Virus record (IMG/VR): IMGVR_UViG_3300024429_000015
Span: 1-47,886 of that record
Length of the DNA: 47,886 nt
Reading direction: 5' to 3' (one strand)
Origin: a virus
The notes below the pieces were generated by a model. The model did not search any database. It had not been told where the DNA came from and worked only from the letters and a program-made list of their open reading frames with translations. The translations under genes and the position numbers were made by a program. Below, piece after piece: positions 1-47,886 of this stretch. Each line of letters opens with the position of its first letter. The stretch's first letter is position 1.

Positions 1-215
1 AACAAATCGTCTCCTTCGGTTTCTCCCAATACCTTGATCCCTAATTGTTTATACTTATCTTTTAGGTCTTTATATCCGTCTGTCCTTGGCAACTGTTCTA
101 CCCTGCACATCTCTTTTTGCCCCTGGGCTTCTTGATTTTCAATTGCTGCCGGATCTCCACCCAATAACCAATCTGGCCTTGGATTCTTAGAAGTATTTAC
201 TATTCTTTCATTCAT
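1..215 (-). CDS. Hypothetical protein, 3' end cut by window edge
   Basis: Open frame starting MNERIVNTSKNPRPDWLLGG and running off the window start without a stop. The ATG is preceded by a clear ribosome binding site (GGGTGAAAGG on the minus strand). It lies downstream of the Cas4-like nuclease in the same leftward operon. In the related operon at 45-47 kb this place is taken by a Sak4-like ATPase, whose sequence is unlike this one, so the two operon copies differ in gene content here. I do not recognise a function. Confidence 0.6.
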   Translation of the reverse strand, partial: MNERIVNTSKNPRPDWLLGGDPAAIENQEAQGQKEMCRVEQLPRTDGYKDLKDKYKQLGIKVLGETEGDDL

Positions 216-287
216 CCTTTCACCCTTCCCATCACCCATCTACTCACACAAATAGCTAGGATGAGTATAATAAAGAATATAGCAGCA

Positions 288-1157
288 TTAATCACTCTTT
301 ATCTCCTTCCCTGTCTTCGCGTCCCACACACTCACCTCATACTCTCCAAGTGCTGCATCGCCATGCAAACAAAGTGCTTGATACGGACACGGACCATAGT
401 GGTTACATGCTTGTGTGTTTTTCGGATAGCTGCTATTCTCAATTGCAAATGTCATGTTCCGAACAATATCTAGTACCTCCTTCCCAAAGTTATTCTGTTG
501 TTCTATGGTCCGTGTCGCAAAGTCTCTTCGGAAACTACTAGTTTTTTGCTTCTTCAGTAATCTATTCCTACCCTTTGCCAACCATGCTTCTACATCAGTA
601 TCAGTCATTACTTCCTGTTTAGTACTGATAGCATCAATTAGGCTACCTTCACACTCACCAAACTTATCTCTACAAGCCGGAATATATCCATCTATTTGAA
701 CATTGAGTTCAAAATCCCTAAAGAAATTATAGCTTAACCTACTAGTAGTTTTGTGTTCCATGACATACAACTTGCTTGTTATTAAATATCTAACAACTGC
801 ATCCATTCTAGCTGCATATGTCACGTCATTGCTAATTTTCATCAAATGCGATCCATTACACTCAATTACTTCAAAGGGATTAGTACGATACTGTTCCATG
901 TATTTTTGAAGTATTAGTACACCATGCTCAACAGTTCGTCTTTCCTTTTCAGGAATATCTACTGGTTGATATGCTTCCTTGAATGCCTTAACTGCATCAC
1001 CACCAGTATAAAATGCTTTGAATCCTAAGTGCATAGCTGCTCCAAAATCTAATGGGTATTTAGGCATGATAGATACAAGATTGCGCTGATGTCTATTATT
1101 CCAATATGCTCGGCAATTTGCAAAGTCACTTCTAGTAGTGGAGTCAAGGTAAATCAT
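288..1157 (-). CDS. Cas4/RecB-like PD-(D/E)XK nuclease with Fe-S cysteines (copy A)
   Basis: 289-residue exonuclease of the RecB/Cas4 type. Visible motifs: GAAMHLGF (His43), RMDAVV (Asp119), VMEHKTT (Glu134, Lys136) and QIDGY (Gln154, Tyr158), the usual order of the PD-(D/E)XK core. Cys15 and C-terminal Cys251, Cys257 and Cys263 (CNHYGPCPYQALC) fit the four cysteine ligands of a 4Fe-4S cluster. Phage relatives process DNA ends for recombination or replication. Its start overlaps the preceding small gene's stop as ATGA. The copy at 45657-46520 is roughly two-thirds identical by eye, which ties this end of the window to the other end. Confidence 0.85.
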   Translation of the reverse strand: MIYLDSTTRSDFANCRAYWNNRHQRNLVSIMPKYPLDFGAAMHLGFKAFYTGGDAVKAFKEAYQPVDIPEKERRTVEHGVLILQKYMEQYRTNPFEVIECNGSHLMKISNDVTYAARMDAVVRYLITSKLYVMEHKTTSRLSYNFFRDFELNVQIDGYIPACRDKFGECEGSLIDAISTKQEVMTDTDVEAWLAKGRNRLLKKQKTSSFRRDFATRTIEQQNNFGKEVLDIVRNMTFAIENSSYPKNTQACNHYGPCPYQALCLHGDAALGEYEVSVWDAKTGKEIKSD

Positions 1158-1324
1158 CTCATCATCCTCTCTAGTTCTTCCACTTCTCTACACTCAGCCT
1201 TTCCAGCTTCTTCCAGATACAACGCAACAATCACTTTTTCAGTAGAGTCAAAGCCATATTTGTTCAATGTTTTGTATATTGCTCGTGTCATTCTTACACA
1301 ATCTTCCAAGCTCTTACCTATCAT
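1154..1324 (-). CDS. Small conserved phage protein (copy A)
   Basis: A 56-residue frame beginning MIGKSLEDCVRMTRAIYKTL, with its ATG overlapping the upstream gene's stop region and its TGA overlapping the nuclease ATG (ATGA). It aligns with the 46507-46719 product over about 40 residues (for example FDSTEKVIVALYLEEA against FDSPEMMIVAMFLKEA), and this cross-copy conservation is the best evidence that it is real. Mostly helical and charged; function unknown. Confidence 0.6.
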   Translation of the reverse strand: MIGKSLEDCVRMTRAIYKTLNKYGFDSTEKVIVALYLEEAGKAECREVEELERMMR

Positions 1325-1466
1325 TCACATCACCTGTACTTTTTCCTTCAGCATCAGGAGTCATGTCAACATTTTGGTATGGATCATCATAAAATAAAGC
1401 CACTACATCAACTTCTCGCTGACACAGTGACTTGTTCTCGCTTCTCACCACCAGTATTCTTTTCAT
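1314..1466 (-). CDS. Short fusion ORF heading the leftward operon (copy A)
   Basis: A 50-residue frame starting MKRILVVRSENKSL after an AAGGAG ribosome binding site. Its first 25 or so residues match the leader gene at 47177-47275 (MKRILGVRAKRKSL). Its last 23 match the C-terminus of the 149-residue protein at 46731-47180 (DDPYQNVDMTPDA...TGDVNDR). Relative to the other copy, an in-frame deletion has joined the head of one gene to the tail of the next. Function unknown; the peptide may be only a translational leader. Confidence 0.55.
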   Translation of the reverse strand: MKRILVVRSENKSLCQREVDVVALFYDDPYQNVDMTPDAEGKSTGDVNDR

Positions 1467-1495
1467 GGGGCAAGACTCCTTATTACTATGAGATA

Positions 1496-1523
1496 AGTAT
1501 ATACTATCTGACAACTTTGTCAA
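1496..1523 (-). promoter_or_regulatory. Sigma70-type promoter of the leftward operon (copy A)
   Basis: On the minus strand TTGACA (1523-1518) is separated by 16 bases from TATACT (1501-1496), about 30 bases before the first start codon. The same promoter, -35 and -10 and most flanking bases, is conserved at 47305-47332. Confidence 0.8.
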
Positions 1524-1590
1524 CCCCCTCTTGCTAGAACAGCCAATGAAGCACACTACAGAGTAGCAAGTAGTAGTAAGCGGAGAAAAC

Positions 1591-1631
1591 GCTGAAACGC
1601 TATTGCTGGTAGGCGCAAAAGTTCCGTCAAC
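1591..1631 (+). repeat. AAAAGTTCCG element, copy 1
   Basis: The segment GCTGAAACGCTATT...GGTAGGCGC-AAAAGTTCCG-TCAAC resembles segments at 2182-2224 and 47470-47509. The shared layout is CTG(A/T)AAC-CT, a short spacer, AAAAGTTCCG, then a (C/T)(T/C)AA tail. All three copies are outside genes. Confidence 0.6.
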
Positions 1632-1876
1632 TAGACACCTATGACTATTACATTTTCGTCATTCTCCGCTAATCTCCGCCTACGCAAAAAGGTCAATTCA
1701 GTTGACAACCATGCACATTACAGCAATTCTCCGTCATTTACGTCAACTTCTGCCTCTATATACTCCCTTATCTCTCTATACTATACCACTAGCCTATCAT
1801 AGCCATTTTATAAGTTTACAAAATAAGCCCAATGTCTGTAATATAGTCTACTAAGGGCTTATAGCAATCCTGTATC

Positions 1877-2002
1877 TCTCTATCCACAGTCATCTTCCCA
1901 ATGGAGTAAATGTCTCGTAAACTCTTATGCTTACTACACCTTAGAAATAAAATATTGATTTGAAAGCCTCTATCCACAGTGGTCTCGGTAATGGAGTAAA
2001 TT
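1877..2002 (+). repeat. Two 90-bp-spaced iteron-like units with DnaA-box-like sites
   Basis: CTCTATCCACAGT followed about 10 bases later by AATGGAGTAAAT occurs twice with a period of exactly 90 (CTATCCACA at 1880-1888 and 1970-1978). CTATCCACA differs from the DnaA box consensus TTATCCACA at one base. The second unit also falls inside the 127-base repeat at the window end, where the first unit is partly degraded. Confidence 0.6.
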
Positions 2003-2050
2003 TGGGGTAAGTCTCTCTAAACATCTATGCCTAGTAGGTTGTGTCCAATG
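1924..2050 (+). repeat. 127-bp exact repeat matching the window end
   Basis: Identical base for base to 47760-47886. The flanking base differs on the left side (T against C), and the right copy is the window end. A length of 127 is a common maximum k-mer in short-read assemblers, so this looks like an assembly-graph junction rather than a biological repeat boundary. Confidence 0.85.
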
Positions 2051-2975: not shown

Positions 2976-2998
2976 CTTCCCCTCCTTGATTGTATTTG

Positions 2999-3304
2999 CT
3001 AGAGACATCGAAAATAGTGTCCATTATCTTCACAATAATCCATCATCACATCTTTTGCTGTACTTCCCCAATTTACATGAACAAAACTAGGGATTGCTTC
3101 AGAACCATAAATGGAGTCAATCAATTGTTCTGTGAAATCCTCATCATCATTGTACTCTCCTTGGTATGCTTTATCGATATATTCTACTCCTATTCCACAT
3201 TCAAGACCTGCTTTGATAACCTCTTCCCCATGTTGGTCAATCAATTCTTCTAATCCTTCTCTTCCCAGTGTTTGGATACAGTCTTTTACCTCTGTGTAAG
3301 TCAT
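2999..3304 (-). CDS. ArdA-like antirestriction protein (putative)
   Basis: An acidic 101-residue protein. The segment AYQGEYNDDEDFTEQLIDSI followed by FVHVNW...AKDVMMDYCEDNGHYFR has the spacing seen in the C-terminal half of ArdA proteins (AYxGEYxSxEDFA, then a YIDYEAxARDL-type segment). ArdA mimics DNA and inhibits type I restriction enzymes. The protein is shorter than full ArdA (about 165 residues) and carries Asn where Asp is usual, so it may be a single-domain form. Its early-operon position suits an anti-defence role. Confidence 0.5.
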   Translation of the reverse strand: MTYTEVKDCIQTLGREGLEELIDQHGEEVIKAGLECGIGVEYIDKAYQGEYNDDEDFTEQLIDSIYGSEAIPSFVHVNWGSTAKDVMMDYCEDNGHYFRCL

Positions 3305-5769: not shown

Positions 5770-6264
5770 ATGACCAAACGTGAGGAAGTAGTTAAGGAAG
5801 CGTTAAAGCCTGAGAACTTGCCTCCAAAAAAGGTGAGGATGATTGATAAGAATATATTGCAATCGTTCTTTATGGGCGATACAGTGAATCAGATAGCAGT
5901 GGCGATAAACAAAACAGAGAGTGCTGTGCGGTCTGCTCTTAACAGGCCAGAGGTACAGCGGGAACTTAAGCGTCTGGATACAAGAATTGAGACTGAACTT
6001 GTACGGCAGAAGGTGGGAGCCGCTAGGACGCTCAAAGAGGCAGCTGTTAAGGCTGCGTCTCAGCTTGTGGAGACAATGGAAAATGCGAGTAGTTTGAAGG
6101 ACAAAAACTGGGCAGCTCTTAAGGTACTAGAGTATGTGCTTGGGAAGCCGAAGGTCTCAGTAGAAGTGAGTGCAGGCAAGAGTGATTTGACAGATGAGGA
6201 TTGGGAGGAGATGGAGGAAGGAGTAGCAAAAGTTGAGAAGTTTGAGGAGGGCAAAGATGACTAG
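5770..6264 (+). CDS. terS: Terminase small subunit
   Basis: 164 residues. An N-terminal helix-turn-helix (residues about 25-60: FFMGDTVNQIAVAINKTESA, then VRSALNRPEVQ) precedes a helical region (IETELVRQKVGAARTLKEAA...) suited to oligomerisation, and an acidic tail. This is the layout of small terminases, which recognise the packaging site and recruit the large subunit. It lies directly upstream of terL at the start of the late transcript. AGAGGTGG precedes the ATG. Confidence 0.8.
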   Translation: MTKREEVVKEALKPENLPPKKVRMIDKNILQSFFMGDTVNQIAVAINKTESAVRSALNRPEVQRELKRLDTRIETELVRQKVGAARTLKEAAVKAASQLVETMENASSLKDKNWAALKVLEYVLGKPKVSVEVSAGKSDLTDEDWEEMEEGVAKVEKFEEGKDD

Positions 6265-6673: not shown

Positions 6674-6693
6674 GGGTGGAGGGAGGGTAATGG

Positions 6694-8221
6694 ATGAGTA
6701 GTAAAGAGAGGCTGAGGAAAAAGTGTCGAGAGGACTTGTTCTACCTCGCCAAGTACATACTGGGGTTTGACTTTCTCATAGAACGATTCCACAAACCCAT
6801 ATGTGACTTTATACAAGACATGACTGTTCATCGCAAACTAGTACGTATGCCACGAGGCTTCCTTTAAGACAACTGTGTGTTCACAGGCGTTTCCGATATG
6901 GCTCACTATTAATAATCCTAATGTACGCATATTACTAGCCAACATGGTCTATGACAATGCAGCTAAAAATGTGCATGTGATTAGGAAGAAGTGGGAGAAC
7001 TGTACGAGGCTGAGAGAGTTGTTTCCTGAGTTCTTTCCCAAAGGACATGCTCATAGTTCCAGGTGGAGTGATGCGTGTGCAGAAGTGGCTAGAAGTGCAG
7101 ATTGGGATGTAGGGACATATGAGAGTGTTGGAGTAGGGGGCAGTAAGATTGGGTCTCACTACAATTTCATCATAGAGGATGATTTGGTAGGGGCTAAAAA
7201 GGATTCGTTGAGTGGGTTGGAGATATTGCCCAATGCTGATGATATACAGAAGGCAATTGGATGGCACGCCCTTGCTCTCAACTTGTTAGTTAATCCAAAG
7301 GAAGATTATATATTTAATATAGGGACGAGGTGGGGACAGTACGATCTCATCAGACACATCATTGACAATCAGCCATATTACAAGAAGTGGGAGATTGATG
7401 CTGTACTAATGGATGAGAAGGGGATTGCCCTCAAAAATAGTGAGTGGGTTCCTACATATCCTGAGAGATTTGACCTGGAACGACTGGAAGAAATACGAGA
7501 CGAGCAAGGTGATTATATCTTCAGCATGATGTATTTAGGTAAGCCGTATAATGTAGAGGACATGATATTCAGAGATGAGTGGGTCAAAAACTTTGATGGA
7601 TGTTTACCAGAAGGCAAACTTTATGCAGGACTGGATGCAGCGTTTGCCAAGACCAAGCGTAGTGATTACACAGCCATTCCTCGTGTTCACGTCAGTGCTG
7701 ACAAGGAACTCAGAGTACATGACTATGTGAGAGCAAAGCTCAATCCGTCTCAAATAATTGATAAGGTGTTTGAGCTGAAGGATGATGAGAGAGGGTTTGA
7801 GTGGATAGCGATGGAGAAGACAACGTATGAGCAAACATTAAAGCACTATATTGAGCTGAGGAATAGAGAACGAGCTAAGACAGGCAAGCCTCCAGTGATT
7901 GTGAAGCCCGTTAAGCGTCCCAAGGGTGAGACCAAAGCTATGCATATTAGAGCACTGCAGCCTTTGTGTATGGCAGGTAACTTCTACGTCAGACCTTGGA
8001 TGAGAGAGCTGAGAAATGAGTTTAGAGAGTTCACTGGTAGAGATACTGGTGGACATGATGATTTACTAGATGCAATAGCAGATGTGTTTCATTTGATACA
8101 CTACCCTCAACACTCCTTACCAGCGAAGGTACGTGACCCCTTTAGTCTGGAGAGTGTGATGGAAGAATTACTAGAGGTGAAACGAGAGCCTGTAAGAGCT
8201 AGACAGCTTTTAGAGAGGTAA
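6694..8221 (+). CDS. terL: Terminase large subunit, read through an apparent +1 frameshift
   Basis: ATP-driven packaging motor and nuclease. Residues 1-57 are in one frame (6694-6864), which stops at TAA 6865. The rest continues in the next frame from 6866, giving about 508 residues if one T is skipped. The joined sequence restores the Walker A motif RMPRGFL-KTTV with Lys58. Walker B is FIIEDD (about 158-163). RNase H-type nuclease residues are Asp314 (LYAGLDAAF), Glu374 (IAMEKTT) and the GGHDDLLDA pair near 455. Neither fragment alone could be a working terminase. Either translation shifts frame here or the sequence has a one-base error or mutation. Confidence 0.85.
6854..6868 (+). promoter_or_regulatory. 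Candidate programmed +1 frameshift site in terL
   Basis: Reading CGA GGC TTC CTT TAA G: CTT (6862-6864) can re-pair as TTT one base on, exactly as at the prfB site CTT TGA C, after which AAG supplies the Walker A lysine. GAGG (6854-6857), a Shine-Dalgarno-like word, lies 4 bases before CTT; in prfB the gap is 3. A one-base insertion error is the alternative. Confidence 0.5.
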
Positions 8222-8590: not shown

Positions 8591-9502
8591 ATGGCAAGTA
8601 TAATTAGAGGAATGGGAATTAGGCAGGAAACAATAGAGGACGTTTATTATGTAGATGGAGTAGCAGGGCTTGATACTAATGCTGGAACAACAGTAGCAGC
8701 TTCCTTCAAAACTATAGCCACGGCTCTTGATGCAGCTGATGACGACTATACTGATGATGCTATGACTTCAATCTATATAAAGCCTGGTGAGTACGAAGAA
8801 GATGACTTGCTGTTTGCAGGTCATGGATTGAGACTTATTGGACTGGGTGTACCAGGTAGAGATAGTGGTGTTCATGTAGTAGCTCCTGACAATGCTTCGG
8901 CTTATGGCAGTATAGCATTGGCAGCAGCTAATGTTGAGATAGCAAATATTTGTTTTGAAATGGGAGCTAGTGCGCAGCCAGTATTGTATGCAGTAGCTAT
9001 GGACAACTGTTGGATACATGACTGTACCTTCTACTGTGATTCAGTTCCAACTAATGTTTGTTGTGTAGAAGCACATGATATTAGAAATACCGTCATAGAG
9101 AAAAATAAGTTTTTTGGTGGAAAGACTTATGGATGGTACGGAATAAGTGGAGCAGATACGTATTTTATTGAATCTATCATACGAGACAATCTATTTGCTG
9201 GAAGTTCTGTTGGGGGCTATGGTAGTGGTGCAAAGGCTATATATATTCATACAGACCAAACAGTATATGGTAGTGTAATTGAGAATAACAAAATACTCAT
9301 GGCAGCTGTTGCTGGAAGTCCCATAGGAATTGATATTGACGCACATACTGATGACAGATGTGGGCTTATGATAAATGATAACTATGTACTGGTGCCTAGT
9401 GGCAAAACTCCCATTGAAACTGCTTTTGCTGTTCCTGGCATGCTTCATAATCATACTGCTGCTGGTACGACTATTGTTGACCCTAATCCAGTAGTAACTT
9501 AA
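8591..9502 (+). CDS. Beta-helix (pectin-lyase-fold) virion protein
   Basis: 303 residues. After YYVDGVAGLDTNAGTT and ASFKTIATALDAA, typical of the start of pectin-lyase-like beta-helices, the chain shows repeated short strand-turn units such as NVEIANICFEMGA, DNCWIHDCTFYCD, NTVIEKNKFFGG and SIIRDNLFAGSS. This fold is common in phage tailspikes that bind or cleave surface polysaccharides. No catalytic site can be assigned. A paralogue lies at 10478-11482. Confidence 0.7.
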   Translation: MASIIRGMGIRQETIEDVYYVDGVAGLDTNAGTTVAASFKTIATALDAADDDYTDDAMTSIYIKPGEYEEDDLLFAGHGLRLIGLGVPGRDSGVHVVAPDNASAYGSIALAAANVEIANICFEMGASAQPVLYAVAMDNCWIHDCTFYCDSVPTNVCCVEAHDIRNTVIEKNKFFGGKTYGWYGISGADTYFIESIIRDNLFAGSSVGGYGSGAKAIYIHTDQTVYGSVIENNKILMAAVAGSPIGIDIDAHTDDRCGLMINDNYVLVPSGKTPIETAFAVPGMLHNHTAAGTTIVDPNPVVT

Positions 9503-10477: not shown

Positions 10478-11482
10478 ATGTCTGGACTTTATTTGAAGAA
10501 CAAGTTTGCTAAAGAATTAGTAATGCGTCTGAAGCAGTCAACTGTAGGAAAGACGTATTATGTAGATGGGACGTATGGAAATGATAGTGGTTCAGGTCTA
10601 TATCCGTTTGATGCTAAAAAGACTGTTCAGGGGGGAGTGGATGCAGTAACCACAAATCGAGGGGATGTTGTTGTAGTCGGGGCTGGCAGGTATTATGAGA
10701 ATGTACGTATTACCAAAAGTAAAATGACTCTGATGGGGGCACAGACTGGAGGTAAGCAGTCTGTTAGTATTAGAGCTGCTGGAGCAGGATTAGCAGGAGC
10801 AGACCATGCAGAGGCTACTCCTCTGTATGGATATACCACGTTAGAAGGTTTAACGATACGTGGCTCTTGTGTTACAGTAAATGCAGCCTCTGTTGAAATT
10901 TGTGGACTTGAACTTGATACTTCTGGTTATCAATATGAGACAAGTCAGTACTATGTCTATTCTGGTATCTATGTAGGCGAAGGAACTAGAATCAGTTCTG
11001 GTTACAACTATGACTGTAATGGTTCTTACATCCATGATTGTATCTTCAAACGTGGTGCAACAGGAATATTGTATGATGGTGCTGCTGAAGATCATAGACT
11101 AGTAGATAATCTATTCTACCGAACAGAGGGTGGTGCTACGAAGGGTGGCGTGTTTATCTGTCCAGGTAGTAACAGACAATCTCAGCGAATACTTATAGCA
11201 GATAATACCTTTATGGAAATGGAAGATTTGTGCTATGGTATCCTTGGATATAGCCATCCTGAGGTAAAGGCTGTTATGGTCTTACGTAATGCGTTCCTTT
11301 CAAAACAAGGTAAAGATATGACTGATGCTATCTGTTATCTTGGAACAGGAGAATGGTTGGTGGCGGGTAATTGGTTTGGATGCAGTAGTGCAGCTTCTAT
11401 GGAGGGTAATAGTTGGACTGCAGGGAACTATGAAGGTTCAGCTGGAAATGACCCAATGACTCTATTCCTGACTGAGGCATAA
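10478..11482 (+). CDS. Beta-helix (pectin-lyase-fold) virion protein, second copy type
   Basis: 334 residues. TYYVDGTYGNDSGSGLYPFD followed by KKTVQGGVDAVTTNRGDVVV is the common start of right-handed beta-helix domains. Strand-turn units follow: LEGLTIRGSCVTV, VEICGLELDTSG, SYIHDCIFKRG, HRLVDNLFYRTEGG, ILIADNTFMEMED, AVMVLRNAFLSK. Similar in plan to 8591-9502 but well diverged. Likely a tailspike or fibre that binds surface glycan. Confidence 0.7.
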   Translation: MSGLYLKNKFAKELVMRLKQSTVGKTYYVDGTYGNDSGSGLYPFDAKKTVQGGVDAVTTNRGDVVVVGAGRYYENVRITKSKMTLMGAQTGGKQSVSIRAAGAGLAGADHAEATPLYGYTTLEGLTIRGSCVTVNAASVEICGLELDTSGYQYETSQYYVYSGIYVGEGTRISSGYNYDCNGSYIHDCIFKRGATGILYDGAAEDHRLVDNLFYRTEGGATKGGVFICPGSNRQSQRILIADNTFMEMEDLCYGILGYSHPEVKAVMVLRNAFLSKQGKDMTDAICYLGTGEWLVAGNWFGCSSAASMEGNSWTAGNYEGSAGNDPMTLFLTEA

Positions 11483-44860: not shown

Positions 44861-45584
44861 TATCCTTCTCCTTTTTCAATCCTTCCAACAAGGCTGTAAA
44901 ATCCTGTTTAATCATTCCTTTTATGCCCAATCTCGACTTAGCAACATATATAGAAGTTGGCTCCGTTCTCCACTCATATCCTCCCATTCTACTAACTTCA
45001 GCATGATACATCTCATCAAACCTATTAGTCAACTCATCTGGCAATGCCTTAGTATAGATAGATGGTTTGATTGGAGGCTCACCAGGCTTAAGCCCCACAC
45101 CCTTAGTCTGTCCCTTAATTTGTATCGGCTCACTCTTTTCCTTCTCATGTGCAGTTACCACTAAATGCCTGCCTAGCGAAGGAAACTTCCATATTAAACT
45201 ACTCATATGTCCTGCAAACATTCCCCAGTGACCTATCGCCATTAACCCATCAGCATTTTGATTGAGAGCTAAGATATGATTCATAAGTATTCGTTGCACT
45301 CCTGTCAATGGATCAATAACATAGCTTGTATACTGCGGATGACTTACTTCCTGCTCAAGTTTACGCTTAAATGCCAACCAAGCAGTAGGTCGTTTAGCGT
45401 CTAAGTCCATATATGTATCGTATGTAATGTCTTCGCCAGCAAGTGAGGCAGTACCACCTTCAAGGTCAAACAGATACACAGGCTTTGGCAATGTTCTTGC
45501 TGCATACGTCTTGCCTGTTCCTGATGGCCCATAGATTAGGAACTTGCCTACGTAGTTACTGAAATCTATATCCTTAGTGTTCAT
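44847..45584 (-). CDS. Sak4-like (AAA_24) recombination ATPase
   Basis: 245 residues from MNTKDIDFSNYVGKFLIYGP, chosen for the AAAGGTAAAAGG site just before it. Walker A is GPSGTGKTYA, Walker B-type strand YTSYVIDPLTGV, and LVVTAHEKEKSEP is the sensor-like strand. This is the RecA-like single-domain ATPase family of phage Sak4 annealing proteins. It sits between the DUF669-like and Cas4-like genes, together a plausible recombination module. Confidence 0.75.
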   Translation of the reverse strand: MNTKDIDFSNYVGKFLIYGPSGTGKTYAARTLPKPVYLFDLEGGTASLAGEDITYDTYMDLDAKRPTAWLAFKRKLEQEVSHPQYTSYVIDPLTGVQRILMNHILALNQNADGLMAIGHWGMFAGHMSSLIWKFPSLGRHLVVTAHEKEKSEPIQIKGQTKGVGLKPGEPPIKPSIYTKALPDELTNRFDEMYHAEVSRMGGYEWRTEPTSIYVAKSRLGIKGMIKQDFTALLEGLKKEKDNGKN

Positions 45585-45656
45585 CCTTTTACCTTTCCCA
45601 TTACCCACTTACTTATAAATAGAGCTACAATTAGTATGACAAAGAATATAGCTGCA

Positions 45657-46520
45657 TTACCCACTCTTTATCTCCTTCCCTGTCCTCGCATCCCACACAC
45701 TCACCTCATACATCTCCATTGCTCCTTCTCCATACAAACACAACTGACGGAAGGGACACGCACCATAGTAGTTGCACATGGACTTATTCATTGGATAACT
45801 GTCGTGTTCAATCGCATACATAATGTTACCAGCAATATCAACTACCTCCTTTCCAAAGTTATTCTGTTGTTCTACGGTGCGTGTCACTATGTCTCTCATA
45901 AAACTAGGAGCTTTTTTTCTGTGTACCAGTGGATTTGTTGATGTTGCTTCAGCAGTAGTTAATACTTCCTTTTTTGTACTAATCGCATCAATTAATACTC
46001 CTTCACACTTACCATATTTATCTTTACAAGCAACTGTATATCCATCTATCTGATGATTTAACTGAAACGTCTCAAAAAAGTAATATCCAAGAGTGCTAGT
46101 AGTTTTATGCTCCATAACATATATAGTTTTGCCTTCCCACTTTATTATTGCATCCATCCTTGCTGCATACGTTACATCCTTACTAAGTTCTATCAAATGA
46201 CTGCCATTACACTCAACTATTTCAAATGGATTAGTCACATACTCCTTCATATACTTCTCAAGTATCATAATGCCATGCTCCACAGTTCTCTTCTCACCAT
46301 CAGCAATATCTTCAGGCTGATACGCTTGCTTGAATGCCTCAATAGGATCATCCTTGATATAGAAAGCCTTAAGACCTAGATGCATAGCCTGACCAAACAA
46401 CAGAGCTAGACTTTTTTGAATAGGAGTTAAGTTGCGTCTATGTCTCCAATACCAACGCATCCGGCAAGTTAGGAAGTCACTTATGGTTGTGTAGTCAAGA
46501 ATTAACTTAGTTCCTGCCAT
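45657..46520 (-). CDS. Cas4/RecB-like PD-(D/E)XK nuclease (copy B)
   Basis: 287 residues. Same order of motifs as copy A: FGQAMHLGL, RMDAIIKW, VMEHKTTS, QIDGYTVAC, and C-terminal CNYYGACPFRQLC with an N-terminal Cys (FLTCRMRWYW) for a 4Fe-4S cluster. Lies between the Sak4-like ATPase and the operon head. Roughly two-thirds identical to 288-1157 by eye. Likely DNA-end processing in recombination. Confidence 0.85.
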   Translation of the reverse strand: MAGTKLILDYTTISDFLTCRMRWYWRHRRNLTPIQKSLALLFGQAMHLGLKAFYIKDDPIEAFKQAYQPEDIADGEKRTVEHGIMILEKYMKEYVTNPFEIVECNGSHLIELSKDVTYAARMDAIIKWEGKTIYVMEHKTTSTLGYYFFETFQLNHQIDGYTVACKDKYGKCEGVLIDAISTKKEVLTTAEATSTNPLVHRKKAPSFMRDIVTRTVEQQNNFGKEVVDIAGNIMYAIEHDSYPMNKSMCNYYGACPFRQLCLYGEGAMEMYEVSVWDARTGKEIKSG

Positions 46521-46719
46521 GCTTCATCACCTTCTCTAACTCCTTTATCATCAAACCTTTACTCTGTCTGTTATTGAGGGCTTGAGTAACACTAGACGAT
46601 GCAGCCTCTTTTAGAAACATAGCTACAATCATCATTTCTGGTGAGTCAAATTCCAACTGCAACATCATCTTGTAAAACACAGTTGCTGTTTCTATGCACT
46701 GTTTGATAGTTTTATCCAT
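46507..46719 (-). CDS. Small conserved phage protein (copy B)
   Basis: 70 residues. I prefer the ATG (MDKTIKQCIETATVFYKMML) because GGTGAGG lies 9 bases upstream; a GTG five codons earlier is possible. Helical; matches 1154-1324 over its central part and has an extra C-terminal region (NNRQSKGLMIKELEKVMKHG). Function unknown. Confidence 0.6.
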   Translation of the reverse strand: MDKTIKQCIETATVFYKMMLQLEFDSPEMMIVAMFLKEAASSSVTQALNNRQSKGLMIKELEKVMKHGRN

Positions 46720-46730
46720 CTTGCTTTTCC

Positions 46731-47180
46731 TCACCTATCATTAACATCACCTGTATTTCTTCCTTTAGCATCAGGAGTCATGTCAACATTTTGGTATGGA
46801 TCATCATTGCATTTTTTCAACTTCCATATCTGACCATGACCTGTATCCTCAACAAGTTCCCCTTCTGGCATCTCTAAGGGCTTCTTGCAAGCTAACTTCT
46901 CCAGTCCTCTCTTTTGAATCTCATCAGATAATGCATGAATCCAATGGTAAACAGCCCAACTTTGTTCTTCCATATCAGAGAGTTCATTTTGAAAAGCCAT
47001 TTGTGCTCCATCTCCTCTTGGCCCCCATATTGGATGATCTGCGTAACGGTACATATTGCCGAGCGCAACAGTTTTGTTTTCCATAAATCGGCACGTATTG
47101 AGGAGGTGATTATCTTTCATATCTTTGATAGCTACAGTTTCACCATCTCTAGTTGTCCACTTCAGTTCCTTTTTACTCAT
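46731..47180 (-). CDS. Hypothetical protein, operon head (full-length)
   Basis: 149 residues, MSKKELKWTTRDGETVAIKD, then helices (HLLNTCRFMENKTVALGNMY, WIHALSDEIQKRGLEKLACK) and a polar tail ending TGDVNDR. The last 23 residues are kept in copy A (1314-1466), where the rest is deleted. Start overlaps the leader peptide stop (ATGA). Function unknown. Confidence 0.65.
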   Translation of the reverse strand: MSKKELKWTTRDGETVAIKDMKDNHLLNTCRFMENKTVALGNMYRYADHPIWGPRGDGAQMAFQNELSDMEEQSWAVYHWIHALSDEIQKRGLEKLACKKPLEMPEGELVEDTGHGQIWKLKKCNDDPYQNVDMTPDAKGRNTGDVNDR

Positions 47181-47275
47181 TTATTTACTTCCATGTAAAT
47201 AAATAAAGCCACTACTTCAGCCTCAAGCTGAAACAGTGACTTCCTTTTTGCTCTCACTCCCAGTATTCTTTTCAT
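47177..47275 (-). CDS. 32-residue leader peptide
   Basis: MKRILGVRAKRKSLFQLEAE then VVALFIYMEVNK. AAGGAG sits 9 bases before the ATG, about 30 bases after the promoter. Basic start and hydrophobic middle; conserved in copy A. May be a translational leader for the operon. Confidence 0.5.
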   Translation of the reverse strand: MKRILGVRAKRKSLFQLEAEVVALFIYMEVNK

Positions 47276-47304
47276 GGGGCAAGACTCCTTATTACTATGA
47301 TCTA

Positions 47305-47332
47305 AGTATATACTATTCAGCAAGTTTGTCAA
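47305..47332 (-). promoter_or_regulatory. Sigma70-type promoter of the leftward early/middle operon
   Basis: Minus strand TTGACA (47332-47327), 16 bases, TATACT (47310-47305). Matches the copy A promoter at 1496-1523 base for base in both boxes. No other strong leftward promoter was seen between here and 35.3 kb. Confidence 0.8.
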
Positions 47333-47440
47333 CCCCCTGTTGTAGAATGGCCATACAAGCACATCCTCACTGCAATCTGACTCATCAGTCATTATTGTGA
47401 ATTTGTCAAATTGAAATGCATGTCAGTATTGTATCTACAC

Positions 47441-47456
47441 ATACCCTAGGGGGTAT
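47441..47456. promoter_or_regulatory. Palindromic operator candidate
   Basis: ATACCC-TAGG-GGGTAT, a perfect 6-base inverted repeat with a 4-base spacer, about 110 bases upstream of the leftward promoter. Suited to a dimeric DNA-binding protein; partner unknown. Confidence 0.4.
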
Positions 47457-47469
47457 CAAATATCACCTT

Positions 47470-47509
47470 CTGTAACTCTGATACTGGTAGGTTCAAAAGT
47501 TCCGCTAAT
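47470..47509 (+). repeat. AAAAGTTCCG element, copy 3
   Basis: CTGTAACTCTGATACTGGTAGGTTC then AAAAGTTCCGCTAAT. Closest in layout to the copy at 2182-2224 (CTGTAACGCTGATGG). Confidence 0.6.
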
Positions 47510-47759
47510 CTCCGTATACATTAAGCGGAGGGTCAAATCCAGAACTGTGTTAGCAATATACCCTCTTCCGTATTTTACGTAGAGGGAGTCTCTTTCCTTG
47601 CCCTTTTCTATCTAACATACACTACTAGTGCATCATAGCCATTTTATAACTTTACAAAATAAGCCCAATCTCTATAACACTGTCTAGTAAAGGCATATGG
47701 CAATTCTGTATCTCTCTATCCATACACATCTTCCCAATGGAGTAAATGTCTCCTAAACC

Positions 47760-47886
47760 CTTATGCTTACTACACCTTAGAAATAAAATATTGATTTGAA
47801 AGCCTCTATCCACAGTGGTCTCGGTAATGGAGTAAATTTGGGGTAAGTCTCTCTAAACATCTATGCCTAGTAGGTTGTGTCCAATG
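47760..47886 (+). repeat. 127-bp exact repeat of 1924-2050 at the window end
   Basis: Identical to 1924-2050; the preceding 100 or so bases are similar but not identical (for example CTCTATCCATACACAT against CTCTATCCACAGTCAT). Best read as the overlap that would close the contig into a circle at position 2051. Confidence 0.85.

What the first reader, a model, noticed from the sequence alone, without database searches (positions are those of the whole stretch)
6854..6868. terL appears to need a +1 frameshift at CTT TAA G, inside its Walker A motif
The first 57 residues of the large terminase end at TAA in one frame and the remaining 451 continue in the next. Skipping one T restores GFL-KTT, the Walker A lysine. 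The site CTT TAA G copies the logic of the prfB (RF2) site CTT TGA C: tRNA-Leu can slip from CTT to TTT with a stop codon in the A site. A GAGG word stands 4 bases upstream (3 in prfB). If real, packaging-motor synthesis would be tied to release-factor activity, which I do not know to be described for terL. A one-base assembly error or a disabling mutation is the rival explanation.
Basis: partly seen in the sequence, partly recalled or inferred. Interest (0 to 1): 0.85.

Follow-up and report, generated by a model that had tools for sequence, protein, structure and literature searches.

The report
Phage packaging motor needing a frameshift
In two clearly diverged strains of an uncultured phage, the gene for the DNA-packaging motor is broken by the same extra base and stop codon inside its ATP-binding loop, yet both halves are still preserved by selection as one protein, so ribosomes probably slip forward by one base there, as they do in the bacterial release-factor-2 gene.

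Summary
terL (6694-8221) runs in frame to CTT TAA (6862-6867) and continues in the +1 frame at AAG (6866), so the Walker A motif PRGFL-KTT is split just before its invariant lysine. It is not a one-off assembly error: a second viral contig (L010/L002, 95% protein and 87% DNA identity) has the same CTTTAAG. Between the two, dS is about 0.8 and dN/dS 0.046. The 26 codons after the stop are just as constrained, although they precede the first start codon the two share. About 40 other relatives, including the next closest (L034, 79%), are uninterrupted, so the shift arose once, in this pair. Best explanation: +1 P-site slippage of tRNA-Leu (CUU to UUU) at a stop codon, as in prfB, making full-length TerL in reduced amount. 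Release-factor control is not supported: UAA is read by both RF1 and RF2, TAAG is this phage's commonest terminator, the spacer is 4 nt (prfB 3), and the GAGG word encodes Arg-Gly and is in intact relatives too. Only two carriers are known, probably from one sample, so transfer of a damaged allele is not excluded. No +1 frameshift in terL was found in the literature held.

The parts
6694..6867 (+). terL first segment, frame 0: 57 codons (ATG 6694 to CTT 6864) plus TAA 6865-6867; N-terminal part of the ATPase domain up to ...MPRGFL
   Evidence: same segment in L010; matches the TerL profile E 4e-20 with 1 TAA
6866..8221 (+). terL second segment, +1 frame: 451 codons KTTVCS...LLER and stop; Walker A lysine, Walker B region (IIEDD), RNase H-like nuclease domain
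   Evidence: fold
6862..6868 (+). proposed slip site CTT TAA G: P-site CTT, A-site TAA; AAG (6866-6868) is the Walker A lysine codon of the +1 frame
   Evidence: identical in L010; prfB uses CTTTGA, 1.4% CTTTAA (PMC12421855)
6854..6857 (+). GAGG, Shine-Dalgarno-like word 4 nt upstream of CTT; encodes part of Arg-Gly of the motif; possible but unproven stimulator
   Evidence: -5.9 kcal/mol with anti-SD, similar in uninterrupted relatives
6677..6688 (+). ribosome binding site of terL (purine-rich stretch containing GGAGGGAGGG just upstream of ATG 6694; approximate limits)
   Evidence: sequence
5770..6264 (+). terminase small subunit gene (terS), intact neighbour
   Evidence: PHROG 2538, E 2.1e-6; 96% identical in L010/L021

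Best explanation
The interruption is real and is bypassed during translation. When the ribosome stops with CUU in the P site and UAA in the A site, the peptidyl-tRNA-Leu slips one base forward onto UUU and AAG is read as the next codon. This makes the 508-residue TerL with an intact Walker A motif (PRGFLKTT); most ribosomes probably terminate and release a 57-residue fragment. The effect would be a low, fixed dose of TerL, which a phage needs in far smaller numbers than capsid or tail proteins. Shown here: the interruption, its sharing by a diverged relative, selection on both segments as protein, the absence of a shared start codon that could restore the lysine, and the fold of the joined protein. 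Inferred: slippage at CTT itself rather than one codon earlier, the efficiency, a dosage role. Not supported: specific control by release factors.
For: Same CTTTAAG in contig L010/L002, gap-free over 1528 bp at 87% DNA identity. dS 0.78, dN/dS 0.046 (95% 0.028-0.067) over 506 codons; first segment 0.12 (bootstrap 0.06-0.29); the 26 codons right after the stop dN 0.043, dS 1.36. In L010 those 26 codons hold no ATG, GTG or TTG (GTG of the window is ATA in L010), so the lysine can only be reached from the first segment. The lysine is invariant in 27 aligned TerLs. The joined protein folds with strand 47-51, P-loop 52-57, helix from K58 (mean pLDDT 85) and its best PDB matches are large terminases. 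CUU before a stop is the natural prfB slip site; TAA occurs there in 1.4% of prfB motifs (PMC12421855). Even an unstimulated +1 site in E. coli rpoB gave 5% frameshifting, enough for growth (PMC7022156).
Against: Only two carriers, sister strains probably from the same sample (window tail and L010 head share exactly 76 bp). A 57-bp identical tract spans the site (6817-6873), so the allele may have moved between strains recently; however, tracts of 68, 68 and 56 bp occur elsewhere in the same gene and the site is low but not an outlier in synonymous differences. About 40 relatives are uninterrupted. No strong stimulator: SD-like pairing is weak and inherited, and no unusual RNA structure follows (z 0.13 and 0.18). 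TAAG is an ordinary terminator of this phage. No reads, no protein data, host unknown.
Confidence: 0.7

Rival explanations
1. A disabling mutation: a one-base insertion inactivated terL recently and the same short allele was exchanged between the two co-occurring strains by recombination, so the low dN/dS mostly predates the damage.
For: 57-bp identical tract around the site; the two contigs are probably neighbours in one assembly; all other relatives intact.
Against: A phage without TerL cannot package its own DNA, so a null allele should not be carried by two strains abundant enough to assemble; the other recognisable genes are intact; equally long identical tracts occur away from the site; there is no second terL in the window; the break falls exactly on a slippery codon plus stop.
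Confidence: 0.14
2. TerL is made as two polypeptides (57 residues and a re-initiated C-terminal part) that assemble.
For: Both segments are conserved; the window has a GTG at 6875 close to the stop.
Against: L010 has ATA there and the first start shared by both is M84, yet codons 58-83 are under strong selection; the split would separate the P-loop from its lysine.
Confidence: 0.06
3. Sequencing or assembly error.
For: Metagenomic contigs; a single extra T.
Against: Two contigs 13% different in DNA have it at the same base; the run is only TTT; about two dozen other genes with homologues show no such break.
Confidence: 0.03
4. A regulated, prfB-like switch in which scarce release factor raises TerL synthesis during infection (a stronger form of the best explanation).
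For: Same slip codon and peptide context (RGYL-stop in prfB, RGFL-stop here); TAA is used by a minority of prfB genes.
Against: UAA is read by both factors; TAAG is common as a normal terminator; spacer 4 instead of 3 nt, weaker SD pairing.
Confidence: 0.07

Closest known systems
prfB (release factor 2) autoregulatory +1 frameshift
   Same: CTT in the P site followed by an in-frame stop starting with T; +1 product continues in frame; purine-rich word upstream; local peptide RGYL-stop versus RGFL-stop.
   Different: Gene is a phage packaging ATPase; stop is TAA not TGA; next base G not C; spacer 4 nt not 3; SD-like pairing weaker (-5.9 versus -10.3 kcal/mol); no reason for feedback on the product.
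Listeria phage PSA +1 frameshifts (capsid and tail-shaft genes)
   Same: +1 frameshifting in a structural gene of a tailed phage, the tail-shaft site next to a stop codon (PMC5009743).
   Different: Slip on a proline codon, in capsid and tail-shaft genes, not in the terminase.
Streptomyces phage Hau3 terminase (suspected bypassing)
   Same: A terminase gene suspected of recoding (PMC5009743).
   Different: Suspected bypassing linked to UUA decoding, not a one-base slip at a stop codon; not examined further here.
Intrinsic +1 suppression of an rpoB insertion in E. coli
   Same: A one-base insertion in an essential gene tolerated because ribosomes slip +1 nearby (about 5%, PMC7022156).
   Different: A selected laboratory mutant at CCC-AGG, not a natural site shared by diverged strains.

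Membership tests
Large terminase (TerL) | Sequence similarity to TerL families | tested here: met
   PHROG 38 E 5e-65 for the joined protein, 7e-55 for the second segment alone
Large terminase (TerL) | Walker A lysine and Walker B acidic pair in the ATPase domain | tested here: met
   K58 and D162-D163 invariant in 27 TerLs; the lysine joins the P-loop only if the frame change occurs
Large terminase (TerL) | ATPase plus RNase H-like nuclease fold | tested here: met
   Foldseek best hits PhiV-1 terminase, T4 gp17, HK97 and D6E TerL; Terminase_6C sub-threshold
RF2-type (+1, CUU-stop) programmed frameshift | CTT codon directly before an in-frame stop, continuation in +1 | tested here: met
RF2-type (+1, CUU-stop) programmed frameshift | Stop codon TGA followed by C | tested here: not met
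   TAA followed by G; TAA in 1.4% of prfB motifs (PMC12421855)
RF2-type (+1, CUU-stop) programmed frameshift | SD-like AGGGGG 3 nt before CTTT | tested here: not met
   GAGG 4 nt before; weaker and shared with intact relatives
RF2-type (+1, CUU-stop) programmed frameshift | Conservation of the site across diverged homologues | tested here: inconclusive
   Shared by 2 sequences at dS about 0.8, absent from about 40 others
RF2-type (+1, CUU-stop) programmed frameshift | Measured frameshift product and response to release factor | not testable with these tools
   needs reporter assay or mass spectrometry

The most novel reading that the evidence does not exclude
A phage DNA-packaging ATPase gene has evolved a prfB-like stop-codon frameshift inside its Walker A motif, so that every active motor subunit requires a ribosomal slip, and the amount of motor reflects the state of translation termination in the infected cell.
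Probability: 0.15. Interest if true: 0.85.

Novelty: new variant of a known kind. Interest (0 to 1): 0.6.

Why it matters
All CUU-stop +1 frameshifts in the RECODE data set are prfB genes (PMC10885494). A second, unrelated gene with the same slip site would show how such a site can arise: the conserved codons of the terminase motif P-R-G-[FY]-L-K readily supply an SD-like word and a slippery Leu codon. It would also be a case of an essential phage motor whose amount is set by recoding, and a warning that annotation pipelines discard such terL genes as broken, although terL is a common marker gene for phages.

Tried and rejected
Looked for the same trick elsewhere: degenerate DNA scans for PRG[FY]L or PRxxWF followed by CTTT/TTTT and K in viral contigs found only L010; the other shifted hits were not terminases. 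GTDB genome scans found no relative. Phage records: only distant TerLs below 60% identity. RNA structure around the site: nothing beyond shuffles. Local synonymous conservation as a sign of a hidden signal: low around the site but not unique in the gene. Suppressor tRNA: none in the window. Second terL: none. Transcriptional slippage: considered and rejected, a run of TTT is too short (established knowledge). A slip one codon earlier (TTC to TCC, giving GFF-KTT; intact L035 has GFF-KTY) would also give a plausible product and is not excluded, but has no stop codon to cause a pause.

Full report
Observation. The large terminase gene starts at ATG 6694, 57 codons run to CTT (6862-6864), and TAA follows (6865-6867). 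The rest of the protein, 451 codons, lies in the +1 frame from AAG 6866 to the stop at 8219-8221. PHROG 38 (terminase large subunit) matches the joined protein at E 5e-65 and the second segment alone at 7e-55. The break lies between Leu57 and Lys58 of P-R-G-F-L-K-T-T; Lys58 is invariant in 27 aligned TerLs. An AlphaFold model of the joined protein has strand 47-51, a loop 52-57 and a helix from 58, the usual P-loop geometry, and its nearest solved structures are large terminases.

Is it an error? A viral contig from IMG/VR (L010, also seen as L002, L021, L033) encodes a TerL 95% identical and has the same letters CTTTAAG at the same codon; the two genes align over 1528 bp at 87% identity without a gap. 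Between them dS is 0.78 and dN/dS 0.046 (bootstrap 0.028-0.067); the first segment gives 0.12 (0.06-0.29), the second 0.04, and the 26 codons after the stop dN 0.043 with dS 1.36. Those 26 codons come before the first start codon that both genes share (M84; the window has a GTG at 6875, L010 has ATA there), so they are seen by selection only if ribosomes enter from the first segment. Of about two dozen other genes with homologues in the related contig G002, none is split between frames, and the window has no second terL.

How old is it? Of 43 TerL hits, all that cover the motif are uninterrupted except L033, which is the L010 contig again; the intact ones include L034 (79%), L039, L037 and L035. 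In a tree the two carriers form one clade with full support, next to L034. So the interruption arose once, after the split from L034 and before the two strains diverged, or it passed between them later. A 57-bp identical tract (6817-6873) spans the site, but tracts of 68, 68 and 56 bp lie elsewhere in the gene, and the site is low but not exceptional in synonymous differences. The last 76 bases of the window equal the first 76 of L010, which suggests neighbouring contigs of one assembly, that is, two strains living together (inference). Exchange of a short allele therefore remains possible; a null allele carried by both strains is less plausible, since TerL is needed for packaging.

Mechanism. 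CTT directly before a stop is the prfB arrangement, in which tRNA-Leu re-pairs with UUU and the ribosome goes on in +1 (PMC12421855, PMC5009743). TAA replaces TGA in 1.4% of prfB motifs. The peptides match too: RGYL-stop in E. coli prfB (from memory) and RGFL-stop here. But the extra elements that make prfB efficient are poor here: the upstream word is GAGG, 4 nt from CTT, pairing at -5.9 kcal/mol against -10.3 for the prfB consensus, and equally good words stand in uninterrupted relatives because they encode Arg-Gly. The base after the stop is G; TAAG ends 8 of the 40 genes counted, including terL. No notable RNA structure follows. I therefore expect low to moderate slippage. Work on rpoB shows that 5% unstimulated +1 slippage can support an essential gene (PMC7022156), and a packaging motor is needed in few copies, so such a level could suffice or even be useful as a brake on TerL (inference).

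What is known. In the RECODE data all CUU-stop +1 sites are prfB (PMC10885494). Phage +1 frameshifts are known in Listeria phage PSA structural genes, and bypassing has been suspected for the Hau3 terminase (PMC5009743). Nine literature searches found no +1 stop-codon frameshift in terL; the library held is incomplete, so this is weak evidence of novelty.

Verdict. A translated +1 frameshift is the best explanation (0.7). Whether it is a selected control device or a tolerated insertion cannot be decided from two sequences; coupling to release factors is unsupported. Classed as a new variant of a known kind.

Noticed in passing
window 211-2050 versus 45580-47886: The two ends of the window are diverged copies of each other (72-94% identity, both with an exonuclease gene, PHROG 1218), and the last 76 bases equal the start of contig L010. 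The contig probably runs once round a circular map of about 45.8 kb and ends in a second strain's version.
   Followed up: partly
L071:3648-4375 and L075:2126-2868: Related terL genes carry in-frame inserts of about 730 bases starting near CTPG and ending in NYIS, which look like inteins at the same place in TerL.
   Followed up: partly
L041, about position 3165: A related terL has one in-frame TAG, in CTT TAG TTA, at a normally hydrophobic position with no frame change; stop-codon reassignment or a damaged gene.
   Followed up: no
L074:200-330: A related terL changes frame near residue 175 of the TerL alignment; not examined.
   Followed up: no
L070 near 2990-3020: An uninterrupted distant TerL has CCG AGG GGG TTC CTT AAA at the same motif: a prfB-grade SD-like word (-12.1 kcal/mol) and a CTT codon without any stop.
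   Followed up: no
window 8591-9502 and 10478-11482: Two proteins beginning alike (YYVDGVAGLDTNAGT and YYVDGTYGNDSGSG) lie between terL and the portal gene; in the relative G002 the homologue of the second lies after the major capsid gene, so the block has moved.
   Followed up: no
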